Virus record (IMG/VR): IMGVR_UViG_3300035034_003571
Location: 1-64,000 of that record
Source: a virus
DNA length: 64,000 nt
Strand: one strand, 5' to 3'
In this document: positions 3,463 to 34,018 of the stretch, in pieces
Layout: every line of letters starts with the position of its first letter
How positions within the stretch are numbered: the first letter of the stretch is position 1
Translations under genes and position numbers: made by a program
Notes under the pieces: generated by a model
The model's database searches: none
The model's input: only the letters and a program-made list of their open reading frames with translations
Told to the model about the DNA's origin: nothing

Positions 3463-5073
3463 ATGCTACTTGAACGATATATAAGGGGCAATAAAAAAGA
3501 TAGAATGATAATATCAGATTTCCTAAATGATAAGGGTCGAGTTTCATCGACCAGGACCACAAAAAGTTATGTTAAGAAACATTTCTATAAAGAATATTCA
3601 AAAGTGATAAAGCATAGTGAAATGATTGGATTGGAACCGGAAAGATTTTCGGAAGAATTATATCACTATTTAAATAATATACTAGAACCCGTTAAATGTA
3701 AAAAATGTACCGAAAAAATACCGAAATTCACCGGGCTTTTGACGGGGTATTTAGATTATTGTAGTTCTAAATGTTCTAATAGTTCTTTGGTTGTTATGGA
3801 AAAAAAGGAGAGAACCTATATTAAAAAATATGGGGTAGATAATCCTTCTAAATCTAATATAATAAAGAAAAAAATAGAAAATAAATTCATAGAAAATTAC
3901 GGGGGGAATCCATTTACCGTTAAAAAAATTAAAGATCAGATAAAAAAAACCAATCTAATTAAATATGGGAATAAGCATCCAATGGGTAAAGGAAGTAACC
4001 TATATGAAAAATTAGACAATGAAAAATTAGATACATTTCTAAATAAATATAGGCATTTAGAGGTAATTAAAAGAGAATCAAAAAAATGGGGAGAAGTAAC
4101 AATCAAATGTAATGAATGTAATAATAATTTTACTATATCCAAGTGGAATTTACACCAAAGGACAAAATTATTAATAGAAACAAATCCATGTACAATTTGC
4201 AATCCTATCGGATGTATTAAATCTTCAGGAATCGAAGATTTCGTTAGGGCTATATTAGAAAAGAATAAAATTAGATATACTGAAAATGATAGAACTATAT
4301 TGGAAGGTAAGGAGATCGATTTTCTTTTACCTGATCATAATATTGGGATAGAAACAAACGGTTTGTATTGGCATTCAGAAAGATTCAAACATCCGCTATA
4401 TCATCAAGAAAAAACAAATTTAGCTAAAAATAAAGGCTATCTATTGATTCATATATTTGAGGACGAGATTACAAAAAATAAAGAATTAGTAAAAAGTAGA
4501 ATCCTATCTATATTGAACCAAAACAAAAGAATTATTTACGCTAGAAAATGCAGCATAAAAGAAATAGATTCGAAAAAATGTAATGCTTTTTTAATAGAGA
4601 ATCACTTGCAGGGAGCAGCAGGGGCAAAAAAAAGATATGGAATGTTTTATGGTGGTGAATTAGTATCTGTAATGACTTTTGGTTCTCTAAGAAAAAACAT
4701 GGGGAACATAAAAAAAGAAGGGCATTGGGAACTAATAAGGTTTTGTAACCTAAGGGGAATTAGTGTTATTGGAGGGGCTTCCAAATTACTTAGTAAATTC
4801 AAAAAGAATAATACACCCAAGAAATTAGTTACATATTGTGATGCTAGATGGTCCGATGGAGAATTTTATAGAAAATTAGGATTCATATTAGAACATCAAA
4901 GTAAACCTAATTACTGGTACTTTAAAAATGGCATCAGAGAAAATAGATTTAAATATCGAAAGGATCAATTAATAAAAGAAGGATACGATCCTAAAAAATC
5001 CGAAGCTCGGATTATGAACGAGCTCGGATTTTTAAAAATATATGATTCAGGCTCTTATAAATTTTCTATGTAA
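3463..5073 (+). CDS. Free-standing homing endonuclease, Vsr-like nuclease plus GNAT-like domain
   Basis: A 536-residue modular protein on the opposite strand to its neighbours. Residues 78-105 hold a Cys4 zinc-binding knuckle. Residues 118-175 carry repeats of the form KYGxxNPxxSxxIKxK, also found in the endonuclease at 7202-8080. Residues 216-246 hold another Cys4 module. Residues 253-345 form the nuclease, with E258, D286, E297 and YWHSE at 302-306, matching the Vsr/EDxHD homing endonucleases described in fractured phage genes. Residues 350-536 look like an acetyltransferase-fold domain. It lies between the polymerase C-half and the clamp gene, so it is a plausible agent of the polymerase fracture. 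Confidence 0.85.
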   Translation: MLLERYIRGNKKDRMIISDFLNDKGRVSSTRTTKSYVKKHFYKEYSKVIKHSEMIGLEPERFSEELYHYLNNILEPVKCKKCTEKIPKFTGLLTGYLDYCSSKCSNSSLVVMEKKERTYIKKYGVDNPSKSNIIKKKIENKFIENYGGNPFTVKKIKDQIKKTNLIKYGNKHPMGKGSNLYEKLDNEKLDTFLNKYRHLEVIKRESKKWGEVTIKCNECNNNFTISKWNLHQRTKLLIETNPCTICNPIGCIKSSGIEDFVRAILEKNKIRYTENDRTILEGKEIDFLLPDHNIGIETNGLYWHSERFKHPLYHQEKTNLAKNKGYLLIHIFEDEITKNKELVKSRILSILNQNKRIIYARKCSIKEIDSKKCNAFLIENHLQGAAGAKKRYGMFYGGELVSVMTFGSLRKNMGNIKKEGHWELIRFCNLRGISVIGGASKLLSKFKKNNTPKKLVTYCDARWSDGEFYRKLGFILEHQSKPNYWYFKNGIRENRFKYRKDQLIKEGYDPKKSEARIMNELGFLKIYDSGSYKFSM

Positions 5074-5907: not shown

Positions 5908-7212
5908 TTATATTTCATCCTCCTCATCCTGATCTATAACTTCAGTCTCTTCAATCTCTTCCTGGAATATCTCTATCCCGTCTATCTCAGTTTTTTGATC
6001 GTCGTATGATTTTGGGATTAATGAAATAGATTTAGCTCCCTTAGATTTTTTTCTTGTTGAATTTAGTATTTTTTCCTGGGCTTTTATTTTTCTTTTACCA
6101 ATTATTATTAGTTTTTTGGTTTCTATTATCAGGTCTTTTGTTTCTTTTATTACATCATCAGATAATTTAACTATTTGAATCTTAGATAATCTAGCCGATA
6201 TCCATCCCTTAAATCCTTTCAAGAAAGCCAAAATCTCTACATTTTTCCTTTTCTTAGAGCTCATAAAAATTAGAAATTTAAGCTTCGCTTCCAAATATTC
6301 TAACTCATTATCAAAATTAACTAAATCCCTTTCCAGTCTTTTAAGTCTTACAAATTCCAGATGAACTTTAAAAGAATCTAAATAATCCTTCACTGAATCG
6401 AATTCCATAACAGATCCATCCCTAACGAAAACCACATTTTCTCTAACTATAACCCTTCCCATATTTTGAATCCACACACTAGCAGAGTCAAATTCTTGAG
6501 GGCTTATACCTCTTAAGGTAACCTGGATATCACATTTCTTTTTAGATGAATTTTCTATTTTATATGCTATTTCACTTTGGTCTAACTTATTTGTTAACCT
6601 ATTCATAAAACTTTCATATTTAATAAGAGGGGAAAGATCAAAAATTCTAATAGATTTCCTTTTCTTGTTAATCTCTATTCCACTTTCTACTAACCAAGAT
6701 CCTTCTTCATTATTAAATCTAGTAACTTTACCAGAGAAGTCTTTAAAATGAGGCTTTAGTATTTTATTTTTACCCTCTAAATATTCTATTACGTCCTCTC
6801 TTTTTCTGGGAAGTATATTACTCCTGTAGCCAACCGCTATACCAACAACATGTGTAGATATACCAATAGGATATTCTACGTGAAGCCAGTCGTGCCCTCC
6901 TTCTTGATTTTTGATGTTTAGGTCTTGGTGTTCGGATATAGTTTCTTTAGCCCATTTACTTATCCTAACGGAGGTGTATCTAGGAGCAGAAGGAGAAGGG
7001 TTTACTGGGGATCCGAAAAATCCGTCACCTTCTAATACTTGCATATCACAACCAAAGGGTCTAGCTAATTTAGCAATAGCTTTAGCCAATGATGAATTAT
7101 GACTTATTATGTTTGATTTACCTATTGAAAAATTAGAATATTTTTCTACCGTTATATCATAAAATGGTTTTGGCTTAACCAATTTAATTTTCTTTATTGA
7201 TTTAATTTTCAT
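5908..7212 (-). CDS. 52: Topoisomerase II subunit gp52-like, C-terminal part with C-intein
   Basis: A 434-residue protein. Residues 1-39 are the C-terminal half of a split intein ending ISHN, and the extein starts at Ser40. The extein continues SSLAKAIAKLARPFGC, then the gyrase-A-like stretch EGDGFFGS and the catalytic tyrosine in PRYTSVR (Y79). A long coiled coil and an acidic C-terminus follow. The N-terminal 70 extein residues come from 8122-8631. After trans-splicing the product would be about 465 residues (T4 gp52: 442). Its start overlaps the 3' end of the HNH endonuclease gene by 11 bp, so translation is probably coupled. Confidence 0.9.
   Translation of the reverse strand: MKIKSIKKIKLVKPKPFYDITVEKYSNFSIGKSNIISHNSSLAKAIAKLARPFGCDMQVLEGDGFFGSPVNPSPSAPRYTSVRISKWAKETISEHQDLNIKNQEGGHDWLHVEYPIGISTHVVGIAVGYRSNILPRKREDVIEYLEGKNKILKPHFKDFSGKVTRFNNEEGSWLVESGIEINKKRKSIRIFDLSPLIKYESFMNRLTNKLDQSEIAYKIENSSKKKCDIQVTLRGISPQEFDSASVWIQNMGRVIVRENVVFVRDGSVMEFDSVKDYLDSFKVHLEFVRLKRLERDLVNFDNELEYLEAKLKFLIFMSSKKRKNVEILAFLKGFKGWISARLSKIQIVKLSDDVIKETKDLIIETKKLIIIGKRKIKAQEKILNSTRKKSKGAKSISLIPKSYDDQKTEIDGIEIFQEEIEETEVIDQDEEDEI
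7096..7212 (-). mobile_element. Split intein, C-terminal half (subunit 52)
   Basis: 39 residues with block F (FYDITV ... YSNF) and block G ending HN, followed by a +1 serine. It starts MKIKSIKKI, nearly identical to the start of the UvsW C-intein. The N partner is 8122-8421. Confidence 0.9.
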
Positions 7213-8080
7213 TTCTTATGGATTCGTCAAAAAATTTAATTTCTTCTTTAAGTTCTTCTAGTGTTATACTACACGAAGCCCACTTGTTTCTATTTTCACT
7301 AAAAGTTAAAATATCAAGATTGGAAATATGTCCTATTATATCAGGGTTTATATTATTTAAAAATCCTTCGTTTCTAGAAAATTTGTGATCTACCGTTAGC
7401 CAATCATTTTTTTCTAATTTTCTTGATTCCTTTATATTGTCCCAAATTTCTGCCCCAAATTTAAGTTTTGCGAATAATCTCATTTGCGACCATGTAATTT
7501 CATAGACGTTGGCTTCGTATATTTTTCTAAGTGGCCACTTATCCCTAGGTGTCCAAAATCCATTATTCTCTGCACTCTTTCTTTTCTTATCTTTTATCTT
7601 TTTGGATTTGGATGGATTGTCATATCCATATTTTAAAATCCAAGTATCTTTCAATTTATTCTTTACGTCTTCTCTTTGGTATACATTACTAACCCCGTAT
7701 AATTTAACAAGATTTTCTTCCATATTTAACCTAGCAGCGGAATCTTTAGATAAATTATGCTCCGCTCCTGTAGTAGATAATGTAGTTTGTTTTTTCATAT
7801 CAAGAGAGCATTTTTTAGAGCAACACATTCTAAATGCTTTATATTCGAATCCACAAACAAAGCATTTATTATTTAGTTTATTTTTTTTATTTAACTTTGA
7901 ATAAAATTCAGGATACTTATTAAAATTAGCTTTCCATAATTTAAATGAGGATTCGCCGATACCTTCTATTATTATAAATTTATCTCTAGATTTACAAAGG
8001 TTACTACAATACATATAAAAGTTTTTCTTATCTGTATTATATTTTTTACCGCATCCTTTACATATTTTCTTTATCATCAT
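7202..8080 (-). CDS. HNH-type homing endonuclease between the halves of gene 52
   Basis: A 292-residue protein. Two Cys4 zinc knuckles (C7/C10/C25/C29 and C73/C76/C87/C91) precede KYGxxNPxxS-type DNA-binding repeats at about 126-165. The C-terminal nuclease at 228-270 reads VDHKFS...GF.NNI.P...GH..NL....ENR.K, a His-Me finger/HNH arrangement with H232 as probable general base. It lies exactly between the two split-intein halves of gene 52, so it can spread the whole cassette. It has its own GATATATA element and a strong hairpin over its ATG. The endonucleases in the other two fractured genes belong to a different nuclease fold. Confidence 0.85.
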   Translation of the reverse strand: MMIKKICKGCGKKYNTDKKNFYMYCSNLCKSRDKFIIIEGIGESSFKLWKANFNKYPEFYSKLNKKNKLNNKCFVCGFEYKAFRMCCSKKCSLDMKKQTTLSTTGAEHNLSKDSAARLNMEENLVKLYGVSNVYQREDVKNKLKDTWILKYGYDNPSKSKKIKDKKRKSAENNGFWTPRDKWPLRKIYEANVYEITWSQMRLFAKLKFGAEIWDNIKESRKLEKNDWLTVDHKFSRNEGFLNNINPDIIGHISNLDILTFSENRNKWASCSITLEELKEEIKFFDESIRNEN

Positions 8081-8113
8081 GGATTTTTATTTTATTATAT
8101 ATCCGTGATGATA
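8071..8113 (-). promoter_or_regulatory. Start-codon hairpin with promoter element inside (HNH endonuclease)
   Basis: Inverted repeat between 8071-8084 and 8101-8113: 13 of 14 positions pair, with one C·A mismatch. The right arm on the mRNA contains AUCCAUGAUGAUAA, that is the start codon. GATATATA (8096-8103) begins at the end of the left arm, so a transcript initiated from it would lack that arm and leave the start codon open. Confidence 0.7.
8096..8103 (-). promoter_or_regulatory. GATATATA element upstream of the HNH endonuclease
   Basis: Minus-strand GATATATA, 15 nt before the ATG at 8080. It overlaps the end of the left arm of the start-codon hairpin. Confidence 0.6.
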
Positions 8114-8118
8114 AAAAA

Positions 8119-8631
8119 TTAATCTATTTCTTGTATATCTTGTCCACTAATTAAATCTTTAGCTTTTATCCATTCTCCATTCACTAAAAATGGATGATCT
8201 TCGGTACATTTTATAATTTCTCCTGATTCTAATTCTATTTCGAAATATTCAGTATTGAGCTGACCTATTCTCGGACTGTGGCCATAACCGATTACCTCCT
8301 TCCCTGTCTCAACATCCATCGATTTTACTAAAAGGTCTGCATCTGGATTTTTTTCATACCAATCCTTAATTTTTATATATGTTCCGTCTGCTAAATTTAT
8401 TTGCGTTTCCCCGTCTAGGCAGTCCCCGTGATGGTAGAGGCCAGATTTTATAACATTACCTACAAGAGATAATGTTTTGTCGTATTTGATTGGAGAGTTT
8501 TGAAGTACTATTCTTTGTACTGGGGTTAGACCATCATAAAAATTAGGTATTCCTCTGCTTTGTAAAACATAAAGAGCATATCCTCGATATTGGTTATTTA
8601 TTTGGTCACTTATAGATACTGATAATCCCAT
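8119..8631 (-). CDS. 52: Topoisomerase II subunit gp52-like, N-terminal part with N-intein
   Basis: A 170-residue protein. Residues 1-70 are the N-terminus of a type IIA topoisomerase subunit A relative, with YALYVLQSRGIPNFYDGLTP and the DNA-contact sequence GLYHHGD. At Cys71 it changes into an intein N-half of 100 residues running to the stop. Joined to the C-part by trans-splicing, the junction becomes YHHGD-SSLAKAI, matching the gyrase A motif that precedes the catalytic tyrosine. It is upstream of the endonuclease and C-half genes on the same strand. A near-perfect hairpin covers its start codon. Confidence 0.9.
   Translation of the reverse strand: MGLSVSISDQINNQYRGYALYVLQSRGIPNFYDGLTPVQRIVLQNSPIKYDKTLSLVGNVIKSGLYHHGDCLDGETQINLADGTYIKIKDWYEKNPDADLLVKSMDVETGKEVIGYGHSPRIGQLNTEYFEIELESGEIIKCTEDHPFLVNGEWIKAKDLISGQDIQEID
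8122..8421 (-). mobile_element. Split intein, N-terminal half (subunit 52)
   Basis: 100 residues starting with the catalytic Cys (CLDGETQI, block A) and containing TEDHPF (block B). The first residues resemble the gp41-1 class of split inteins found in fractured phage genes. The C partner is 7096-7212. Confidence 0.9.
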
Positions 8632-16037: not shown

Positions 16038-16464
16038 AATCTTTAAAAACTTGTACCGTTTTATTTCTTTCTATTAATTCAGTCCACTTTCCATCATATC
16101 TAGTAGCTCTTACTATATGATTATCTACCCAATGATAATTTCCTCCTCTCGGCTTTCCCATAAGAAGCCCAGAATACTTATAACCATTAGCGGTTAACCA
16201 ATCTTCAGTGACTTTTCTATGCTCTTCTGTTCTGGACGTAAAAAAAGTTATTATATCTCCTCCTTCGTACCAACCATTTATAATCTCTATTGAACCTGGA
16301 TAAGGTAAGCAGGTAACCATTCTTTCAGGCTCCTCATTAGGTATATCATCCGTTATTGTTCCGTCTATATCAATCAGGTAGTTTTTTTTACCTTTTGGTA
16401 AGACGGGACTTATTAAAGCCCCGTCTTTATTTTTAATACTATCTAATTCCATATTAATTAACAT
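16036..16464 (-). CDS. HAD-superfamily phosphatase
   Basis: A 142-residue compact HAD hydrolase: motif I is DIDGT at 32-36 with nucleophile D32 and acid/base D34. Motif II is FFTSRTEEH (75-83). Motif III/IV is KPRGG at 104-108 with D114. There is no large cap domain. Relatives include small nucleotide or polynucleotide 3'-phosphatase-like phage proteins. A role in nucleotide metabolism or nucleic-acid end repair is suggested by the neighbours (nrdJ, adk). The start could be ATG 16464, overlapping the nrdJ stop, or the in-frame ATG at 16452. Confidence 0.8.
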   Translation of the reverse strand: MLINMELDSIKNKDGALISPVLPKGKKNYLIDIDGTITDDIPNEEPERMVTCLPYPGSIEIINGWYEGGDIITFFTSRTEEHRKVTEDWLTANGYKYSGLLMGKPRGGNYHWVDNHIVRATRYDGKWTELIERNKTVQVFKD

Positions 16465-18152
16465 TTACTCCAACCACAGTTGGTACACATTAAGCATCCC
16501 TCTTGATAAGTCATAGTATTTACACCTTTACATTCTTCGCAGTTATCAGTAGATTTTAAATCTTCTGATAGATACTTTTTAAGGGTTCTTCCTATAGCTT
16601 TACTGAAAGATGTTATATTTCCTTCAGCTTTATTTAGCTGTTCAAAAATAAACTGGATAGGGGTACCATGTCTTAGTGCAGTAGATATTAATCTAGTTAA
16701 AGCTTCTTGTTCATCAGTTTCAAAGTTAACCGCAAGATTTTCTATAATTAATCCATTAGAACACTCTAAATTATAATGGCCCCTTTTAACTTTAGTTAAT
16801 CGACCATCTTTTATAGAAGTAGGCAGGTGTATAGATTTTGTCTTAAATGCAAATACTTCGTATGGATCATCGGACATTAACCCAATAATAACTATCCAAC
16901 TATCACCTTTAGATGTAACGTGGTGAATGTCACAAAGTAAAGTTTTTCCCCTAACAGGAGCATCGGTTTTTATTATTTTATTTTCTTCCTTTTTTGAATC
17001 TTCCTTTTTCGTTGAAGAAAGTACTTCTGTCATAGTACCAGCTCTATATGTGGTTCCGCCCTTTACAGTTTTAGTACTGTGTAGATCCTTATAAAGGGTT
17101 TTGAATGATTCGAAAGGATAATCATTAGGAATATTAACAGTTTTAGACATAGCACTATCTATATATTTTGATAATACCCCCATGGTAACAACATGTTCGT
17201 CTATACCAAGTTCAGTTGTAGTAGCTGCCCAAGGTGCTTTTGGATCCCATTCATTAGTTGATTCCAAAGATCTAACGGCGTAATCTTTTACTGTGGTTTC
17301 TCTGAGTAATCCTCTGGAATTATCGAATTTCCAAGTATTTCCTTGGAACTTAACTGATAACAAATTTTCATCTCCTTCTTTAATCCATTCCCATTCGGTA
17401 TCAGATTTGTATGTTTTATTTACCCAATCAACATTTTTAGGGACACTTAATCCTTCTGGTGCATAAGGCATCATACTTGTTCTCACATACTCAGGCATGA
17501 ATACAGGCTCAAGTCCTCCAGATATAACATTAGCAAAAATTGAGGTATTTCCCGTTGGTTGAATAGAAAGTAGATGGGAATTTCTTATTCCAAATTGTTT
17601 TATAAGGGATCTAGTTTTTTCGTCTAGGTTTTTAATAAATTCGCCACTAAGATATTTTTCCTCGTCATACAATCCGAAAACTCCTTTCTCTTCGGCTAAT
17701 ATAGCAGAAGACGAATATGCAGTATTCATTATAAACTTCATAAGGGATTCAGTTAATTCAACAGCTTTTTCTGATCCATATCTAAGTTTCATCATCATTA
17801 AAGCTGAACCATATCCCATGATTCCAAGACCTATTCTTCTTTTGTCTTTGAGATTTTGTCTTTGAGATTCTAACGGAACGTTTGTTACGTCATTAACATT
17901 ATCCATGAATCTAATTGCAATGGGGATGATTTCTTTTAGTTTTCCATAATCCCAGTCATTTTTATTCTTATTTACAAATTGGGTTAGATTCAAAGAACCA
18001 AGAAGACATACCCCACCTATAGGTAACAATTGTTCCCCGCAATTATGTACTAAAAGTCCGTTTGCAAAAAAATTATGGTTATTTTTTACTGTGATGTCAT
18101 AAACATCCTGATTTTCTACGACCTCTATCGATTTTATTTTAATTTCTTTCAT
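16458..18152 (-). CDS. nrdJ: Class II ribonucleotide reductase, C-terminal part with C-intein
   Basis: A 564-residue protein. Residues 1-37 are a C-intein ending VHN. The extein begins CGEQLLPIGGVCLLGSLNL; the first Cys is the thiyl-radical cysteine of the conserved NPCGE motif, which is only rebuilt by trans-splicing. The barrel continues through PTGNTSIFANVISGG. A TSCPD-type domain lies at about 400-520. The tail CEECKGVNTMTYQEGC ... CTNCGWSKC is the Zn-ribbon/redox end typical of adenosylcobalamin-dependent NrdJ. A class II enzyme needs no NrdB and works with or without oxygen. It depends on host or environmental B12. Confidence 0.93.
   Translation of the reverse strand: MKEIKIKSIEVVENQDVYDITVKNNHNFFANGLLVHNCGEQLLPIGGVCLLGSLNLTQFVNKNKNDWDYGKLKEIIPIAIRFMDNVNDVTNVPLESQRQNLKDKRRIGLGIMGYGSALMMMKLRYGSEKAVELTESLMKFIMNTAYSSSAILAEEKGVFGLYDEEKYLSGEFIKNLDEKTRSLIKQFGIRNSHLLSIQPTGNTSIFANVISGGLEPVFMPEYVRTSMMPYAPEGLSVPKNVDWVNKTYKSDTEWEWIKEGDENLLSVKFQGNTWKFDNSRGLLRETTVKDYAVRSLESTNEWDPKAPWAATTTELGIDEHVVTMGVLSKYIDSAMSKTVNIPNDYPFESFKTLYKDLHSTKTVKGGTTYRAGTMTEVLSSTKKEDSKKEENKIIKTDAPVRGKTLLCDIHHVTSKGDSWIVIIGLMSDDPYEVFAFKTKSIHLPTSIKDGRLTKVKRGHYNLECSNGLIIENLAVNFETDEQEALTRLISTALRHGTPIQFIFEQLNKAEGNITSFSKAIGRTLKKYLSEDLKSTDNCEECKGVNTMTYQEGCLMCTNCGWSKC
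18042..18152 (-). mobile_element. Split intein, C-terminal half (NrdJ)
   Basis: 37 residues: MKEIKIKSIEVV..., block F VYDITV ... NHNFFANG, block G LLVHN, then +1 Cys. Very like the C-half of the described NrdJ-1 split intein. The N partner is 18957-19256. Confidence 0.93.
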
Positions 18153-18157
18153 TAATA

Positions 18158-18901
18158 CTATATTTTTTTTAATTTTTTAATTTTCCACTCGTCAAAGTCT
18201 ACTTTAAAATTATCAGTGTATGGTTCTATATCTTCTATTAATACAGTTTCACATTCAACTAATTCTTTTAGTTTATAGAATTTCCATTTTTTAGATTTCC
18301 AATAGCCTTTTATTTCTATTATTTTAATTATTTTATTATTATTTCCAAATACGAAAAAATCAGGTTTATATAATATATTATTTCCAACGTTATATGTTCT
18401 ATATTCTGAATCCCATTTTATATTATTCTTATCTAACCATTTAGCATAAATATATTCCCATGAACTTCTTAACCATACATATTTTTCCATAGATTTATTA
18501 AAATAATAACCTTGTACCCCTCTTGCACTATAAGAAGTTTTTATATTGTACATTACTTTTGGATCAAATGCTCCTCTTTTTTCTGCTATTTGTATTCTTG
18601 CATTTTCCTTTCTTTTATTTCTTAAGAATTTGTTAGCGTGAGTAGAGCTTTTTAATTCAAAATCAAAATGGGAAACCAGAGAATTTCTCATCACTGAATA
18701 TGTTATGGGTAGAGAGTAATCTTTTATCATAGATTTTATTCCCATTCCTATTTTATTATATTTTTCATTCAAAAAATCATAAGTTTCTTTATACCTAATA
18801 TCATTTACTATTTTATTTTTTGAATGTAACCTCCTCGTACCATCCTGAATTTTAAATTTTCCTGATTGTATATCATCAAGAAATTCTCTAATATTTTCCA
18901 T
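18158..18901 (-). CDS. PD-(D/E)XK homing endonuclease between the nrdJ halves
   Basis: About 247 residues from the ATG at 18901; a TTG one codon upstream could also serve. Residues 1-120 are basic and helical, probably DNA-binding. The nuclease is C-terminal: RSSWE (E at about 149), then YKPDF (D about 181) and IIEIKGYW (E about 196, K about 198). This gives the E...D...ExK order of TnsA-like PD-(D/E)XK enzymes. The same RSSWE...DF...YEIK spacing occurs in the endonuclease inside uvsW (32192-33004), so the two are related. It ends 5 nt before the C-half start. A hairpin and a CATATATA element precede the start. Confidence 0.8.
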   Translation of the reverse strand: MENIREFLDDIQSGKFKIQDGTRRLHSKNKIVNDIRYKETYDFLNEKYNKIGMGIKSMIKDYSLPITYSVMRNSLVSHFDFELKSSTHANKFLRNKRKENARIQIAEKRGAFDPKVMYNIKTSYSARGVQGYYFNKSMEKYVWLRSSWEYIYAKWLDKNNIKWDSEYRTYNVGNNILYKPDFFVFGNNNKIIKIIEIKGYWKSKKWKFYKLKELVECETVLIEDIEPYTDNFKVDFDEWKIKKLKKI

Positions 18902-18902
18902 C

Positions 18903-18937
18903 AATCCCTGCGCTTTATTTTATATATGGCAGGGATC
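18903..18937 (-). promoter_or_regulatory. Hairpin with promoter-like element before the nrdJ endonuclease
   Basis: Inverted repeat aatccctgc (18903-18911) / gcagggatc (18929-18937): eight pairs plus a wobble. The right arm on the mRNA ends two bases before the AUG at 18901. The loop opens with CATATATA (18921-18928), a one-base variant of GATATATA, so initiation from it would delete the left arm. Confidence 0.6.
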
Positions 18938-18953
18938 AAAGGTTTTATTATTT

Positions 18954-21383
18954 TTAGTAACTTATAAGTATATCATCTTGGGTTAACTTAGAAGCTTCCG
19001 CCCATCCCCTATTTTTTGTATATACTTTATGGTCCGGAGTTAATTCTAAGGTTTTTCCATCTTCTAAATTCAATTTAATTACATTAGTATCTTTCTTAGA
19101 AAGTCCCCCCCAAGTCATTTCATTTAATTCTACTATATTTTTTTCCTCGTTATATGAATGAATGAGAAATTCCTCCCCTTTATTAAATCTAGCTATAAGA
19201 GAATCCAATCTTATTTCCTCTTTATTAGTTTTTATAATACTACTTCCCACTAAACATGGGTTAGTAGCGCTAATATATTCACAATAATGTAGGTTATTTT
19301 TTTCATTTATAGTATCAGAAAAAAGAATCCCGGGTTCGTTACGATTATACGTAGATTCCATTATTAGATCCCAGAGCTCGTTTGCATTTTCGTATGTTTT
19401 ATAAACTGTGGTAGATAAACCAGCTTTTTTCCATTTTTCCAGATCTCCGTCCCAATCTTTTTTATATTCACTACCGTGCTTTTCGTAATCTGGGAATTCT
19501 AATTCCCATTTGGAATTAGTTTCAACAGCTTTCATAAACGCATCACTAACTAAAAGTGACATATTGAATTTAGTTAATCTACCAGGGGTTTGTTTTGCAG
19601 TAATAAACTCTTCTATATCTGGATGCCAAACAGACATGGTAACCATCTGTGCACCCTTACGAATTTTTACTTTACCTCTAGTTGATTTCCTCCCTGATCC
19701 TGCTGTAATAACTGCTGACTGAGTATCCCACATACTTAACATTTCTACAGCTCCTGGTGATTCGTTTCCAATTCCTCTAATAAAAGCTCCTCTGGGTCTC
19801 ATCGTATCAGAACAAAATCCATATCCACCTTCAGACTTTAAAATTAATGCTTGCCTTTTTAGAGTGTCTAGGATTCCTTCCATAGAATCTTTATCTTCTC
19901 CCATAAATCCATCAACAAAACAATTATGAACAACTACATTATTGACCACGTAGCTTTCGTCTTCTTCTACAGATATATTATACACTTTACCTTCGAAATG
20001 CTTCTCACTTTTATCGAAGCCATTAACTAGAAATATTCTTTCGGAATCTGTAGATTCGTCAATAACTGGTTTTATTCCATTATTAACATAGCCTTTATTT
20101 TTTAACCTTTCGTCTAAGTAAACTTTATTTAAAAGTGGTAATAAATCTGAAGAAAATTCCTTATTTATATAAAGTAAATAACCTTCATTTATACCATTCC
20201 TAATCATTGCAGTTTTCCTACTTGGTATACCTAGCATATTAAGAATAGCTTGAGAGTCATTTATAAGTTTTTCGTTATTTAATCCGAGCTTAATATAGCC
20301 TTTTTTAGTAACGGTTCCGTCAGCATCTATTAAACCAACGATGAAACTTTTTTTAATTTCTAATGAAGAACCCCATATAAATTCAGGAATTTTTTTATTA
20401 GCATACCCCTTTCCACAAGAATTACTTAAAAATAGAGATAATATTGGATTTGACTTTCTTAAATATAAACTACCGTTCGAATTTTCGTTAATGTTTACTG
20501 ATATTCCGAATTTATCTTCTATTATATTTTTTATGGAATTTAAAGATTTTATTTCATCTTGTGCAAATGCTATATTGAAACTATCTGTTAAATAATTACT
20601 GTCAAGATTTTGTTTCCATGTACTTCCATCTCCAACAAACCTACCTATAACATAAGCCAATTCAGAATCAACTACTAAATTTCTTTTAATTTTTGCAGAA
20701 GATCTCGTCTGAACTGCTGTATTACCAGTAACACATTCAGTTAAAGTGGAAATATAATCATCGTCTTTATATACATTATCTATATCAATAAAGTTTGAAA
20801 TATCTATGGTATTTTTATCCATAGTATTATCTGTTAAGAGGACTAACCTATTATTATCTGCTGATTTTTTAAATTTACCATTACCTTGATAAAATGGATG
20901 CTCCTTTGTTACTTCTATTTTATTTGTCAATAAACTAGAAGAATATACATCTATAAGACCTGAATGATCTTTAACCATAGTGGATACTACCTTTCTCCAT
21001 CTTCCTTTATGAGTTAATACTATATCCCCTACTTTTATGTCTATGATTTTTTTATATCCATTATTTGTTAATATCTCGGTTTCTGAGGTAAAACAATTAA
21101 TATAAGTAGTTCCCTTAAGTCCTGTACCTGCATTAGAAGTTATCCTTCCTCCGGGAACGAATTTAAAATCTTCTAAAGCATATAAGAATCTATCTTTCCA
21201 ATAGTCTTTATCTTCTTCTATGCTAGCTAAATTTTCCGATACCCTTTCCTGAGTCCCGTTAATGTCTTCATCTCCGTACCTATAGGTTTGCTCGTAGATT
21301 TCTTTAGCAAAAGAATCTACAAATTCCGTACCCTTTCTAAAGGTTTCCTCTTTTTCCACATTTTTATGCGTCATTTCTTCCAT
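18954..21383 (-). CDS. nrdJ: Class II ribonucleotide reductase, N-terminal part, with full intein and N-intein
   Basis: An 809-residue precursor. Residues 1-96 are the reductase N-terminus, ending TTYIN. Residues 97-487 are a complete intein. From Cys488 the extein resumes CFVDGF; this is the position of the first redox-active cysteine of the active site. The extein runs through SAVITAGSGRKS and stops at ISATNP. The last 100 residues (710-809) are the N-half of a split intein starting CLVGSS. After cis- and trans-splicing with 16458-18152 the mature enzyme would be about 845 residues. Neither half can be active before splicing because both key cysteines are generated at splice junctions. Confidence 0.93.
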   Translation of the reverse strand: MEEMTHKNVEKEETFRKGTEFVDSFAKEIYEQTYRYGDEDINGTQERVSENLASIEEDKDYWKDRFLYALEDFKFVPGGRITSNAGTGLKGTTYINCFTSETEILTNNGYKKIIDIKVGDIVLTHKGRWRKVVSTMVKDHSGLIDVYSSSLLTNKIEVTKEHPFYQGNGKFKKSADNNRLVLLTDNTMDKNTIDISNFIDIDNVYKDDDYISTLTECVTGNTAVQTRSSAKIKRNLVVDSELAYVIGRFVGDGSTWKQNLDSNYLTDSFNIAFAQDEIKSLNSIKNIIEDKFGISVNINENSNGSLYLRKSNPILSLFLSNSCGKGYANKKIPEFIWGSSLEIKKSFIVGLIDADGTVTKKGYIKLGLNNEKLINDSQAILNMLGIPSRKTAMIRNGINEGYLLYINKEFSSDLLPLLNKVYLDERLKNKGYVNNGIKPVIDESTDSERIFLVNGFDKSEKHFEGKVYNISVEEDESYVVNNVVVHNCFVDGFMGEDKDSMEGILDTLKRQALILKSEGGYGFCSDTMRPRGAFIRGIGNESPGAVEMLSMWDTQSAVITAGSGRKSTRGKVKIRKGAQMVTMSVWHPDIEEFITAKQTPGRLTKFNMSLLVSDAFMKAVETNSKWELEFPDYEKHGSEYKKDWDGDLEKWKKAGLSTTVYKTYENANELWDLIMESTYNRNEPGILFSDTINEKNNLHYCEYISATNPCLVGSSIIKTNKEEIRLDSLIARFNKGEEFLIHSYNEEKNIVELNEMTWGGLSKKDTNVIKLNLEDGKTLELTPDHKVYTKNRGWAEASKLTQDDILISY
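18957..19256 (-). mobile_element. Split intein, N-terminal half (NrdJ)
   Basis: 100 residues beginning CLVGSS and containing TPDHKVYTKNRGW near the end, closely like the N-half of the NrdJ-1 split intein. Inserted between NP and CGE of the NPCGE active-site motif. The C partner is 18042-18152. Confidence 0.93.
19923..21095 (-). mobile_element. Intein with LAGLIDADG endonuclease domain in nrdJ
   Basis: A 391-residue in-frame insertion. Block A is CFTSETEIL and block B is TKEHPFY. A LAGLIDADG-type (DOD) endonuclease in the middle shows VIGRFVGDGS (about 245-254) and VGLIDADGTV (349-358). Blocks F/G are VYNISVEEDESYVVN ... VVVHN with +1 Cys. All splicing residues are present, so it should be active. 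It sits directly before the redox-active cysteine of the reductase. Confidence 0.95.
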
Positions 21384-31256: not shown

Positions 31257-32195
31257 CTATAGTTTTACTTTATAAATTTTATAGTCAAACATCTCCTTTT
31301 TATAGATATCTATTCTCGCTTTACTGTGCTTCATTAGATAGTTTTCAAATTTCCTAGTGCTAAAATCGTCAACAAAATCTATTACATTAACAAATTCCTT
31401 ACCCTCCATCTTCCGCATTCCCCTACCTAAACTTTGCTTTATGAGTACCTCACTTTTATATGATTCAACCAAATAAATATTATGTATATTGTTAATAGAA
31501 ATTCCTGTAGAAAATGTACCATATGTAGCAACTAAAACTTTATTGCTACCCGTTCCCATTCTATTTTTATACTCTTCCCTTAAATTTTCACTAGTTTCTC
31601 CTTCTACGTAAAATGCTTCTTTTTCAGCATTTTTTTCTCTTAATAAATTCCATATTTGTTTTCCATATTCATCTTTAACTGACTGGAAAAGCACTAGTGA
31701 ATTTTTAGTAGATCTAGATATCATATCCACGATATAATTCAACCTTTCTCTACTTTGAATAACTAATTTTCTTTCAATGTTATAAAGATCGTTACCTTCT
31801 AAATCATTAGAACCATTTTTTAGATCGGCTAGTTTTTCTTTATATTCTTTACTAAGCCAATCCATCTGGACAATCTTAATATTAACCGGAGTAGCATGAT
31901 TTTGTTCAAAAAGGAATTTTGGAGAGATTTCAACTATTAAAGGTCCCAAAAATTGTTGGATAGTTAAATGGTCAGCAGAATCTCTTTTTGTTAGGGTTCC
32001 AGTTAATCCGAACCTCCATTCAGAGTGCATGCACTTGGATATAATTTTTTTGATAGACATCGAATTGGTCTGATGACAATTACTAACCAACACTTCATTA
32101 GCTATATAATTATGATTTTTATTATCTGGCGATTTTATTCTTAGATTATAAACATCTCCCGAATAGTCAATTTTTTTAATGCTTTTAATTTTCAT
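31257..32195 (-). CDS. uvsW: UvsW helicase, C-terminal part with C-intein
   Basis: 312 residues. Residues 1-39 are a C-intein ending VLVSN (Ser instead of the usual His before the final Asn). The extein starts CHQTNS, the second half of the DECH box. It continues with motif III GLTGT (63-67), a second RecA-like domain and motif VI QSLGRGMRK. Together with 235 N-terminal extein residues this gives 508 residues, close to T4 UvsW (503). UvsW unwinds R-loops and branched DNA and helps switch replication from origin to recombination mode. The start overlaps the endonuclease stop as ATGA. Confidence 0.93.
   Translation of the reverse strand: MKIKSIKKIDYSGDVYNLRIKSPDNKNHNYIANEVLVSNCHQTNSMSIKKIISKCMHSEWRFGLTGTLTKRDSADHLTIQQFLGPLIVEISPKFLFEQNHATPVNIKIVQMDWLSKEYKEKLADLKNGSNDLEGNDLYNIERKLVIQSRERLNYIVDMISRSTKNSLVLFQSVKDEYGKQIWNLLREKNAEKEAFYVEGETSENLREEYKNRMGTGSNKVLVATYGTFSTGISINNIHNIYLVESYKSEVLIKQSLGRGMRKMEGKEFVNVIDFVDDFSTRKFENYLMKHSKARIDIYKKEMFDYKIYKVKL
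32079..32195 (-). mobile_element. Split intein, C-terminal half (UvsW)
   Basis: 39 residues starting MKIKSIKKI, with NHNYIANEVLVSN at the end and +1 Cys. The penultimate residue is Ser rather than His, which may slow Asn cyclisation. The N partner is 33026-33313. Confidence 0.9.
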
Positions 32196-33004
32196 CTATT
32201 TATAGATTTTTCGATTAACTGGGAAATTCTAATTTCTTCGGGTTGGTATATTAAATTTTTACGATCGTAATTTTCAATCATCCATTCTTCTGTAATATAA
32301 ATATATTCGAATCCATTTTCTTTACACCAGACAATAGCCGCACTTTCTTTATCCTTATTATCCTTAATTTTTATATTTGGTTTAATCTCATATAATATTG
32401 AATTTTTAAGATCTGAAAAGTCAACTATATAATTTCTATTTTTTTCTTTAATTGAATCATAGTATTTAATTCTTATATTTTCATAGCATAAACCCGGATT
32501 CATTATATAAAAATATGCCTCCCAAGAAGATCTGACCTTTATTATTTTTGAGTTTATAATTACGTTTATTCTGCTATGACACCAAGAATTCGTTACCGCA
32601 GGAGTAAAAATCCCCCTTTCTATCTTATTTTTAACTATGAAAGAAAGTTTTTCTTTCATACTATTTTTAGTTTCTTTTGTCATCCGATGGGAAGTATTAT
32701 TCTCTCTCTGTTTCTGCGAAAAGTCTTTATCTGCACATTCTCTTGAACAAAATGGGTTTAATTTCCACCTGGATCCGTTTTTATTCTTTTTATCTTTTTT
32801 GCACCCATTCCTTTTACATATTCCAGTATCCTCGTCGATATACAAAAGAATTTTATAAATAGTATCTATTTTATCGGGAATTATAAAATTCCCTAATAAT
32901 TTTAAATTTAATATTACTCTTTTGTCAAGATCAGGTTCTCTATTAATATTAGTTTGAATTAATTTATGTGGATTTTCTCTTATATATTTTCTTAATCTTC
33001 TCAA
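32192..33004 (-). CDS. PD-(D/E)XK homing endonuclease between the uvsW halves
   Basis: A 270-residue protein. A helical N-terminus is followed by a Cys4 zinc knuckle (C63, C68, C86, C90) and a basic region. The nuclease domain shows RSSWE (E162), IVDF (D195) and LYEIKP (E206, K208), then a C-terminal CKENGFEYIYITEEWM. This matches the nuclease in nrdJ (18158-18901) in motif order and spacing. The apparent start is TTG at 33004; no ATG lies in frame just upstream, though ATA at 33010 is possible. Its stop overlaps the C-half start. A GATATATA element in a weak bulged stem precedes it. Confidence 0.8.
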   Translation of the reverse strand: MRRLRKYIRENPHKLIQTNINREPDLDKRVILNLKLLGNFIIPDKIDTIYKILLYIDEDTGICKRNGCKKDKKNKNGSRWKLNPFCSRECADKDFSQKQRENNTSHRMTKETKNSMKEKLSFIVKNKIERGIFTPAVTNSWCHSRINVIINSKIIKVRSSWEAYFYIMNPGLCYENIRIKYYDSIKEKNRNYIVDFSDLKNSILYEIKPNIKIKDNKDKESAAIVWCKENGFEYIYITEEWMIENYDRKNLIYQPEEIRISQLIEKSINR

Positions 33005-33022
33005 TTGTATGATGGGGTTTAT

Positions 33023-34018
33023 TTATATATCCCAAAGCTCATCAGACAAATTCAAATCCTCCACTTTTTTCCAATCTCCGTTAATTAACTTAACTTTATG
33101 ATTCCCGGTAAGTTTAAGAACTTTTCCACCTTTAGTTTCTATTTCATATATTTGATGTCCTTTATTTAAATTTTTATAAATATATTCAACCTCACGAATT
33201 TCTTTTTCTCCTGTATCCTCATTGATAGTATATACCATCTGCCCTTCATTCACATATTGGATATCTTGAGACTTCCCGTTAGCTAGCAAAACTTTAGAGG
33301 TAGGATGTAAACACTCATCAACAAAAACCGCATCCACATCAGTAAAAAAGGATTCGTCCTTTTTTACTAAGGACTGAAATGTACCCATTATTATATCACA
33401 TCCTTCTCTTAACTTACTTCCTCCTCCAATTTGCTGTATTTTAGATCCCTTTAAATCGGATAATCCATAATCATCAAAATCATCAGATCCCTGAAAAACT
33501 AAATTAGTATTAGGTACTATTACCATAAACTTTTTAATTAGTTTATGAGACTTTAAATAAGCAAATATCATGAAAGAAATTAAGGTCTTTCCCGATGATG
33601 TTGCTATTTCGGATACTGAATATTTATATTTAATTATCTTCCATGCAGCATGTACTTGATAGTCTCTTGGGATTATTTCTTTACCTTCAAAAAATTCATC
33701 TACCCATTCCTGAAAATCCTCTAATGTTAGATCCTTTACAAAAAGATCCTCTAATCCTTCTATCTGAATATCTATATCGTATTGCTCTCCTATATCATAA
33801 ACTTCTTTCCAAAGTCCAATAGAAACCTTCCAAAATCCCCCTTTCTTATCAACGAAGCAAATATTACCATCCCAGATTTTCTTTTTAACTAATGGATGAA
33901 AAAACCAGTTATTTATTTTTTTAGTCAAGGAAAGCTCCAGCTGCCTTTTTTCAAGCTCATCTTCCGCCGAAAGGAGTATTAACCATTTTTTATCTTCTGA
34001 TAGCTTGAACTTTAACAT
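33023..34018 (-). CDS. uvsW: UvsW helicase, N-terminal part with N-intein
   Basis: 331 residues. Residues 1-110 are the UvsW N-terminal domain. The helicase core then begins with IPRDYQ (Q-motif-like) and a Walker A-type ATSSGKT at 139-145, and reaches the DExH box FVDE at 232-235. At C236 the protein switches to a 96-residue intein N-half running to the stop. The DECHQ box is thus rebuilt only on trans-splicing with 31257-32195. The gene starts directly after the preceding stop (TAA-ATG). Confidence 0.93.
   Translation of the reverse strand: MLKFKLSEDKKWLILLSAEDELEKRQLELSLTKKINNWFFHPLVKKKIWDGNICFVDKKGGFWKVSIGLWKEVYDIGEQYDIDIQIEGLEDLFVKDLTLEDFQEWVDEFFEGKEIIPRDYQVHAAWKIIKYKYSVSEIATSSGKTLISFMIFAYLKSHKLIKKFMVIVPNTNLVFQGSDDFDDYGLSDLKGSKIQQIGGGSKLREGCDIIMGTFQSLVKKDESFFTDVDAVFVDECLHPTSKVLLANGKSQDIQYVNEGQMVYTINEDTGEKEIREVEYIYKNLNKGHQIYEIETKGGKVLKLTGNHKVKLINGDWKKVEDLNLSDELWDI
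33024..33031 (-). promoter_or_regulatory. GATATATA element upstream of the uvsW endonuclease
   Basis: Minus-strand GATATATA, 19 nt before the TTG at 33004, overlapping the stop of the uvsW N-part. Flanking GAUG-GGG and CCC-CAUC could pair around it with a 6-nt bulge. Confidence 0.5.
33026..33313 (-). mobile_element. Split intein, N-terminal half (UvsW)
   Basis: 96 residues starting CLHPTSKVLL, with the block B equivalent TGNHKVKL. Inserted between DE and CHQ of the helicase DECHQ box. Confidence 0.92.

What the first reader, a model, noticed from the sequence alone, without database searches (positions are those of the whole stretch)
16458..21383. nrdJ broken twice, each time at a catalytic cysteine
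A full LAGLIDADG intein (19923-21095) ends directly before Cys488 (IN|CFVDGF), the position of the redox-active cysteine. A split intein interrupts NP|CGE, so the thiyl-radical Cys is the +1 residue at the start of the C-extein. The enzyme cannot exist until one cis- and one trans-splicing reaction are complete. A separate nuclease ORF lies between the halves. Combining a nuclease-bearing cis intein and a fractured-gene split intein in one reductase is notable.
Basis: partly seen in the sequence, partly recalled or inferred. Interest (0 to 1): 0.85.

Follow-up and report, generated by a model that had tools for sequence, protein, structure and literature searches.

The report
Phage reductase gene twice interrupted by inteins
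In this phage the gene for the DNA-building-block enzyme ribonucleotide reductase is interrupted at two catalytic cysteines, once by an ordinary self-splicing intein and once by a split intein with a nuclease gene between its halves; each kind is already known, but a copy of the nuclease's presumed target recurs beside the nuclease gene in most related loci and suggests how it controls itself.

Summary
A class II reductase (NrdJ, 845 aa after splicing) carries a 391-aa LAGLIDADG intein before Cys97 and a split intein at NP|C before Cys319, the thiyl-radical cysteine, with a 247-aa nuclease gene between the halves.

It is ordinary in kind. The split part is a 'fractured gene' of the NrdJ-1 type. 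Nearly all close relatives of the nuclease (28 viral-contig rows, 22 distinct regions besides the window) sit between split-intein halves at this reductase site. The nuclease is 41-46% identical to copies in reductases whose exteins are only about 33-34% identical, so the cassette moves laterally. Relatives carry the cis intein alone, a contiguous mini-intein, unrelated inteins, or nothing. Other reductases are broken two or three times. Topoisomerase and UvsW in this window are fractured likewise.

New lead: just upstream of the nuclease, 16 of 23 distinct loci carry an inverted copy of the Asn-Pro-Cys coding target (about 0.2 expected). In the window it lies in a hairpin that also pairs the start codon. 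I-TevI of phage T4 has such an operator and hairpin. Autorepression is the likely reading, unproven. The native -1 proline is a second puzzle, because it blocks splicing of the characterised NrdJ-1 intein.

The parts
21096..21383 (-). NrdJ extein 1 (residues 1-96)
   Evidence: ORF and in-silico splice; aligns with LR756502 and others
19923..21095 (-). cis intein, 391 aa, two LAGLIDADG motifs; +1 residue Cys97 (redox cysteine)
   Evidence: Pfam LAGLIDADG_3 2.5e-12; intein_Cterm 9.8e-7; homologue 48% identical at the same site in L054
19257..19922 (-). NrdJ extein 2 (residues 97-318, ends ...SATNP)
   Evidence: PF02867 3.7e-48
18957..19256 (-). split intein N-half (IntN, 100 aa); stop codon 18954-18956
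   Evidence: intein_Nterm 1.9e-07; joined IntN+IntC matches the NrdJ-1 structure 8ubs, E 1.7e-19
18898..18942 (-). predicted RNA hairpin over the start codon of the nuclease gene
   Evidence: -17.7 kcal/mol, z -4.6, 0 of 200 shuffles fold as well
18903..18911 (+). inverted copy of the Asn-Pro-Cys coding target (AATCCCTGC on + strand)
   Evidence: exact in 16 of 23 distinct cassette loci; shuffles mean 0.2, maximum 3
18158..18901 (-). free-standing nuclease, 247 aa, PD-(D/E)XK/TnsA-like (SSWE...PDF...EIK)
   Evidence: conserved in 15 relatives; AlphaFold pLDDT 88.9, Foldseek best match TnsA, probability 0.95 but E 0.066; phrog_945 endonuclease
18042..18152 (-). split intein C-half (IntC, 37 aa)
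   Evidence: intein_Cterm 1.2e-11
16458..18041 (-). NrdJ extein 3 (residues 319-845), begins CGE; C-terminal cysteine-rich tail of class II enzymes
   Evidence: PF02867 5.7e-50 and TSCPD 4.8e-08; NrdJ_Z best NCBIfam match; Cys319 aligns with Tm Cys322
5908..8631 (-). second fractured gene: topoisomerase II subunit A-like, IntN 8421-8122, nuclease-like ORF 8080-7202, IntC 7212-7096
31257..34018 (-). third fractured gene: UvsW-like helicase, IntN 33313-33026, TnsA-like nuclease 33004-32192, IntC 32195-32079
   Evidence: same arrangement in Salmonella phage S16

Best explanation
The phage nrdJ gene hosts two unrelated selfish elements. At Cys97 sits a conventional cis intein with its own LAGLIDADG homing endonuclease. 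At NP|Cys319 sits a mobile 'fractured' cassette: IntN, then a separate nuclease gene, then IntC. Each half of the reductase is translated with its intein half. IntN and IntC associate and trans-splice, with the future thiyl-radical Cys319 itself acting as the +1 nucleophile, while the cis intein excises before Cys97. Together these give an intact 845-aa class II reductase. The nuclease probably cuts intein-free nrdJ alleles at the Asn-Pro-Cys codons during mixed infection, and repair copies the whole cassette. Expression of the nuclease is probably held down by a hairpin over its start codon and by its own binding to a target-like operator beside its start. Shown: anatomy, conserved motifs, site fidelity, lateral transfer, hairpin prediction and target-like motif. 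Inferred: splicing, cutting, homing, repression.
For: Intact motifs and domains. Nearly all nuclease relatives with HMM E below 1e-50 (28 rows, 22 distinct besides the window) lie at NP|C or NPC| of reductase genes next to split-intein halves. The nuclease is 46, 41 and 45% identical to L093-L095 while the exteins are only 32-34% identical, which vertical descent does not give. Close relatives (about 60-73% identical) have an empty site, e.g. LR756502 and L012, or other inteins there: L088 contiguous mini-intein, LR756501 HNH intein, L087 LAGLIDADG intein. L054 has the cis intein alone. Target-like motif and hairpin; T4 precedent: PMC2988022.
Against: Nothing here shows splicing, cutting or homing directly. 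-1 Pro blocks splicing of the characterised NrdJ-1 intein (PMC13123727), so these NP|C inteins must differ or splice slowly. Foldseek support for the nuclease fold is weak in E-value (0.066). The exact motif also occurs inside the nuclease ORF in 2 of 28 control stretches.
Confidence: 0.9

Rival explanations
1. The two halves assemble into an active reductase without trans-splicing, as the split NrdA of Aeromonas phage Aeh1 does.
For: Aeh1 precedent (PMC2988022); reported -1 Pro block for NrdJ-1 splicing.
Against: All splicing motifs are conserved here and across the cassette loci; without splicing the radical cysteine would sit behind a 37-aa intein tail. In Aeh1 no intein halves are present.
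Confidence: 0.06
2. The inteins are kept as a control device: splicing at catalytic cysteines times or redox-gates the reductase.
For: Both +1 residues are catalytic cysteines; a redox-responsive DnaB intein is in the literature (title in the reference list seen).
Against: Occupancy is sporadic and interchangeable: empty in close relatives and filled by unrelated inteins in others, as expected of parasites and not of a conserved switch.
Confidence: 0.07
3. A decayed pseudogene or an assembly artefact.
For: Two ORFs where one is usual; metagenomic assembly.
Against: All three ORFs are open and conserved; the same layout recurs in more than 20 distinct viral regions; two more genes in the record are fractured alike.
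Confidence: 0.01
4. The inverted Asn-Pro-Cys motif is only part of a ribosome-binding hairpin, not a nuclease operator.
For: In the window, L093, L094, L095 and L112 it abuts the start codon and forms the 3' arm of the stem; AGGGA and AAGGA resemble a Shine-Dalgarno sequence.
Against: In L099, L101, L102, L104, L105, L106 and L107 it lies upstream of the start, apart from any ribosome-binding site, and L099 has four copies. The matches vary at the target's codon wobble positions. Few genes of this phage use a Shine-Dalgarno sequence (4 of 45).
Confidence: 0.35

Closest known systems
Fractured genes with split inteins (Dassa et al. 2009, Nucleic Acids Res 37:2560) and the NrdJ-1 split intein
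   Same: Conserved enzyme gene broken by a split intein with a free-standing nuclease gene in the break; reductase host; NrdJ-1 is the best solved match (8ubs, E 1.7e-19).
   Different: NrdJ-1 splices at NPC|SEI with an obligate +1 Ser (PMC13123727); here it is NP|CGE with +1 Cys and -1 Pro. The nuclease is TnsA-like, whereas Dassa et al. stress a Vsr-like family (from memory; paper not held).
LAGLIDADG cis inteins of ribonucleotide reductases (RIR1)
   Same: Domain order, motifs and insertion before a catalytic cysteine; direct homologue in L054 (48%) at the same site.
   Different: Shares its gene with a split intein.
Phage reductases with several insertions (Campylobacter phage IBB_35 NrdA; Bacillus phage SPbeta NrdE)
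   Same: More than one splicing element in one reductase gene (PMC3322345, PMC3653736).
   Different: Those pair two inteins, or an intron and an intein; here a cis intein with a split intein.
I-TevI, I-TevII, I-TevIII and mobE regulation in T4-like phages
   Same: Target-like operator beside the nuclease gene and an RNA hairpin at its translation start (PMC2988022).
   Different: Those lie in introns or between genes, with larger known operators (15/20 nt identity for I-TevI); here a 9-12 nt inverted target copy inside a split-intein cassette, and no clear T4-type late promoter in the window copy.

Membership tests
Class II ribonucleotide reductase (NrdJ) | Barrel with radical Cys, second redox Cys, Asn and Glu (Tm Cys322, Cys333, Asn320, Glu324) | tested here: met
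   Cys319, Cys330, Asn317, Glu321 align
Class II ribonucleotide reductase (NrdJ) | First redox Cys (Tm Cys134) | tested here: met
   Cys97 opens PF02867 and is invariant in relatives; it lies just outside the phmmer alignment, so equivalence rests on family alignment
Class II ribonucleotide reductase (NrdJ) | NrdJ_Z is the best family; no NrdB partner needed | tested here: met
   TIGR02504 best for both halves, though each half scores below the full-length cut-off; no PF00268 in the record
Class II ribonucleotide reductase (NrdJ) | Adenosylcobalamin dependence and enzyme activity | not testable with these tools
   needs biochemistry
Fractured gene with split intein | IntN and IntC with splicing motifs on separate ORFs at one extein position | tested here: met
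Fractured gene with split intein | Free-standing nuclease gene between the halves | tested here: met
   247-aa ORF, SSWE/PDF/EIK motifs, TnsA-like model
Fractured gene with split intein | Trans-splicing activity | not testable with these tools
   needs expression of the halves
NrdJ-1 split intein | Insertion NPC|S with +1 Ser | tested here: not met
   NP|C with +1 Cys; homologous, but a sister type one codon away; L097, L123 and L127 have NPC|S
Vsr-like (EDxHD) fractured-gene nuclease | EDxHD-type nuclease in the break | tested here: not met
   TnsA-like PD-(D/E)XK instead
I-TevI-type autorepression | Target-like operator beside the nuclease start | tested here: met
   sequence level only: 16 of 23 loci against 0.2 expected
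I-TevI-type autorepression | Nuclease binds operator and represses its promoter | not testable with these tools
   needs binding and reporter assays
LAGLIDADG intein | Hint splicing domain with two LAGLIDADG motifs | tested here: met

The most novel reading that the evidence does not exclude
The fractured-reductase cassette carries its own regulatory copy of its homing target. The nuclease binds an inverted Asn-Pro-Cys coding sequence beside its start codon and represses itself, as I-TevI does; in a subset of loci, including this window, the copy is built into a hairpin that also closes the start codon. If so, the operator reads out the nuclease's recognition core (AAYCCNTGY, wobble positions free). 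Fractured genes and T4 group I introns would then have arrived at the same self-control.
Probability: 0.5. Interest if true: 0.65.

Novelty: new member of a known kind. Interest (0 to 1): 0.48.

Why it matters
The locus shows one essential active site being claimed by two different splicing parasites. Its relatives display empty, contiguous, split and multiply split states of the same codon, a natural series for how split inteins arise. The target-like motif gives a direct, cheap test of whether fractured-gene nucleases regulate themselves, and predicts their recognition core. The NP|C inteins are candidates for splicing after a -1 proline, which the well-studied NrdJ-1 intein does not tolerate.

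Tried and rejected
Searching viral contigs with the cis intein alone found no relative; L054 was found through its extein. A scan of bacterial and archaeal genomes with the nuclease alignment found none, so there is no host evidence from that side. The Dassa 2009 paper is not held, so I could not check whether the target-like motif was already noted there. Searches for papers on RIR1 intein plus proline gave nothing. A T4-type late promoter as a general rule in this phage was rejected: TATAAATA occurs upstream of 3 of 45 genes (about 0.5 expected) and not exactly in the nrdJ gap. Target-like motifs at other fractured sites were not convincing: topoisomerase p 0.02-0.03 forward; UvsW, L068 and L010 not significant. 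A group I intron guide sequence as the source of the inverted motif was considered and dropped, because nothing needs RNA splicing here and the proline wobble position often mismatches the locus's own target.

Full report
Observation. On the minus strand the reductase is encoded in two ORFs, 21383-18954 and 18152-16458, with a nuclease ORF (18901-18158) between them. Removing the cis intein (21095-19923) and joining at NP|CGE gives 845 residues. Both halves are best matched by the class II reductase model NrdJ_Z. Phmmer against T. maritima NrdJ aligns Asn317, Cys319, Glu321 and Cys330 with Asn320, Cys322, Glu324 and Cys333. Cys97 opens the barrel domain and is one of only three cysteines invariant among five relatives.

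Intein integrity. The cis intein has C1, TKEH, two LAGLIDADG motifs with their acidic residues, and VVHN|C. The split intein has C1, TPDH, NFFANG and LLVHN|C. Its closest solved relative is NrdJ-1 (8ubs, E 1.7e-19). NrdJ-1, however, sits one codon downstream (NPC|SEI) and needs a +1 Ser (PMC13123727). Here the radical cysteine itself is the +1 nucleophile. The same paper reports that -1 Pro disrupts the first splicing step of NrdJ-1. In the window and in most distinct relatives the native -1 residue is Pro, so these inteins must cope with it. From memory, the Mth RIR1 cis intein also has a native -1 Pro; I could not confirm this here.

Relatives of the nuclease. Two viral-contig scans gave a sharp split. 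Loci whose nuclease scores below 1e-50 (28 rows besides the window, 22 distinct after removing duplicated regions) lie at NP|C or NPC| of reductase genes with IntN and/or IntC alongside, where the contig extends far enough. Weaker relatives (E above 1e-25) show no intein halves. The window nuclease is 46, 41 and 45% identical to those of L093-L095, although the reductase exteins are only 32-34% identical. Reductases 59-73% identical to the window's lack the cassette. Nuclease genes normally evolve faster than their host enzymes, so this is lateral movement of the cassette.

States of the two sites. Within the window's own NrdJ clade I see: both sites filled (window); Cys97 intein only (L054, homologous, 48%; L067, a different intein); NP|C filled by a contiguous mini-intein 53% identical to IntN+IntC (L088), by an HNH intein (LR756501) or by LAGLIDADG inteins (L087, L007); a split intein with another type of nuclease at the PTGN site (L068); and empty (LR756502 and most of the 80 loci, a list that favours uninterrupted copies). 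Among more distant reductases L098, L099, L100, L105 and L126 carry two or three insertions. Two inteins in one phage NrdA are already published (PMC3322345). Double interruption is therefore co-occurrence of two independent parasites at favoured codons.

The rest of the window. A topoisomerase subunit (8631-5908) and a UvsW-like helicase (34018-31257) are fractured in the same way. The UvsW arrangement also occurs in Salmonella phage S16. No further intein was found in the 131-kb record. The portal protein and UvsW are closest to unannotated 460-735 kb phages and Lak phages, so the record may be part of a larger genome. The leader sequences are A-rich with few Shine-Dalgarno sites (4 of 45), which would suit a Bacteroidota host; this is inference.

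Nuclease. Sixteen sequences share WLRSSWEYIYAKWL, PDF and EIKG. The model (pLDDT 88.9) finds TnsA first in the PDB, with probability 0.95 but an E-value of only 0.066, so PD-(D/E)XK/TnsA-like is likely but not firmly shown. It is not the EDxHD (Vsr-like) type seen in L068 and LR756500.

Target-like motif. Between IntN and the nuclease start I noticed an inverted copy of the codons for Asn-Pro-Cys (RCANGGRTT on the gene strand). In 23 distinct loci it is exact in 16 and within one mismatch in 20. First-order shuffles give means of 0.2 (maximum 3) and 3.9 (maximum 9). Controls: 0 of 27 N-extein stretches and 2 of 28 stretches inside the nuclease gene. The pattern was noticed in the first 15 loci; of the eight loci added afterwards, five carry it exactly. 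In the window it spans 18903-18911 and forms one arm of a hairpin (18898-18942; -17.7 kcal/mol, z -4.6) that pairs the start codon. L093, L094, L095, L112 and L126 have comparable hairpins, z -4.1 to -8.7. In L099, L101, L102 and L104-L107 the motif lies upstream of the start, so it is not merely a ribosome-binding element. In T4, I-TevI binds an operator resembling its homing site and represses its own late promoter, and hairpins close the translation starts of I-TevI and mobE (PMC2988022). Autorepression is the natural reading; its weak points are the short motif and the absence of binding data.

Verdict. It is a new member of a known kind, with one new and testable regulatory lead.

Noticed in passing
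window 23450-21999 (-) and 3390-2242 (-): B-family DNA polymerase is encoded in two pieces about 18 kb apart, broken just before the NSxYG motif; no intein halves, but charged helical-looking tails on both pieces. GIY-YIG-like (24452-23784) and EDxHD-type (3463-5073) nuclease genes lie beside the pieces. Split gene 43 is known in Aeromonas phage 25.
   Followed up: partly
window 8631-5908 (-): Topoisomerase II subunit A-like gene fractured by a split intein (GD|SS) with a nuclease-like ORF between; its gap holds a forward near-copy of the target (TATCATCACGG against TACCATCACGG, p about 0.03).
   Followed up: partly
window 34018-31257 (-); L092: UvsW-like helicase fractured at DE|CH with a TnsA-like nuclease; the halves are separate PHROG families and the same layout is in Salmonella phage S16, where it is annotated only as helicase plus hypothetical protein.
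   Followed up: partly
L004 16334-15855 (-): The phage's own gp4-like head-completion protein shares the RSSWEY motif with the homing nuclease (E 2e-4 in a single comparison); PHROG 218 'head closure' also matches the nuclease. A common ancestor is possible.
   Followed up: partly
L011 3807-4909 (crAss-like phage cr108_1): nrdJ is split just after the NPCG codons around a separate ORF (annotated hypothetical protein) in the break, without intein halves; probably a group I intron.
   Followed up: no
L098: One reductase broken by three split inteins in a row; to function it would need three trans-splicing events.
   Followed up: partly
L126 1191-6371: Reductase broken twice by split inteins, once with an EDxHD-type and once with a TnsA-like nuclease in the gap.
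   Followed up: partly
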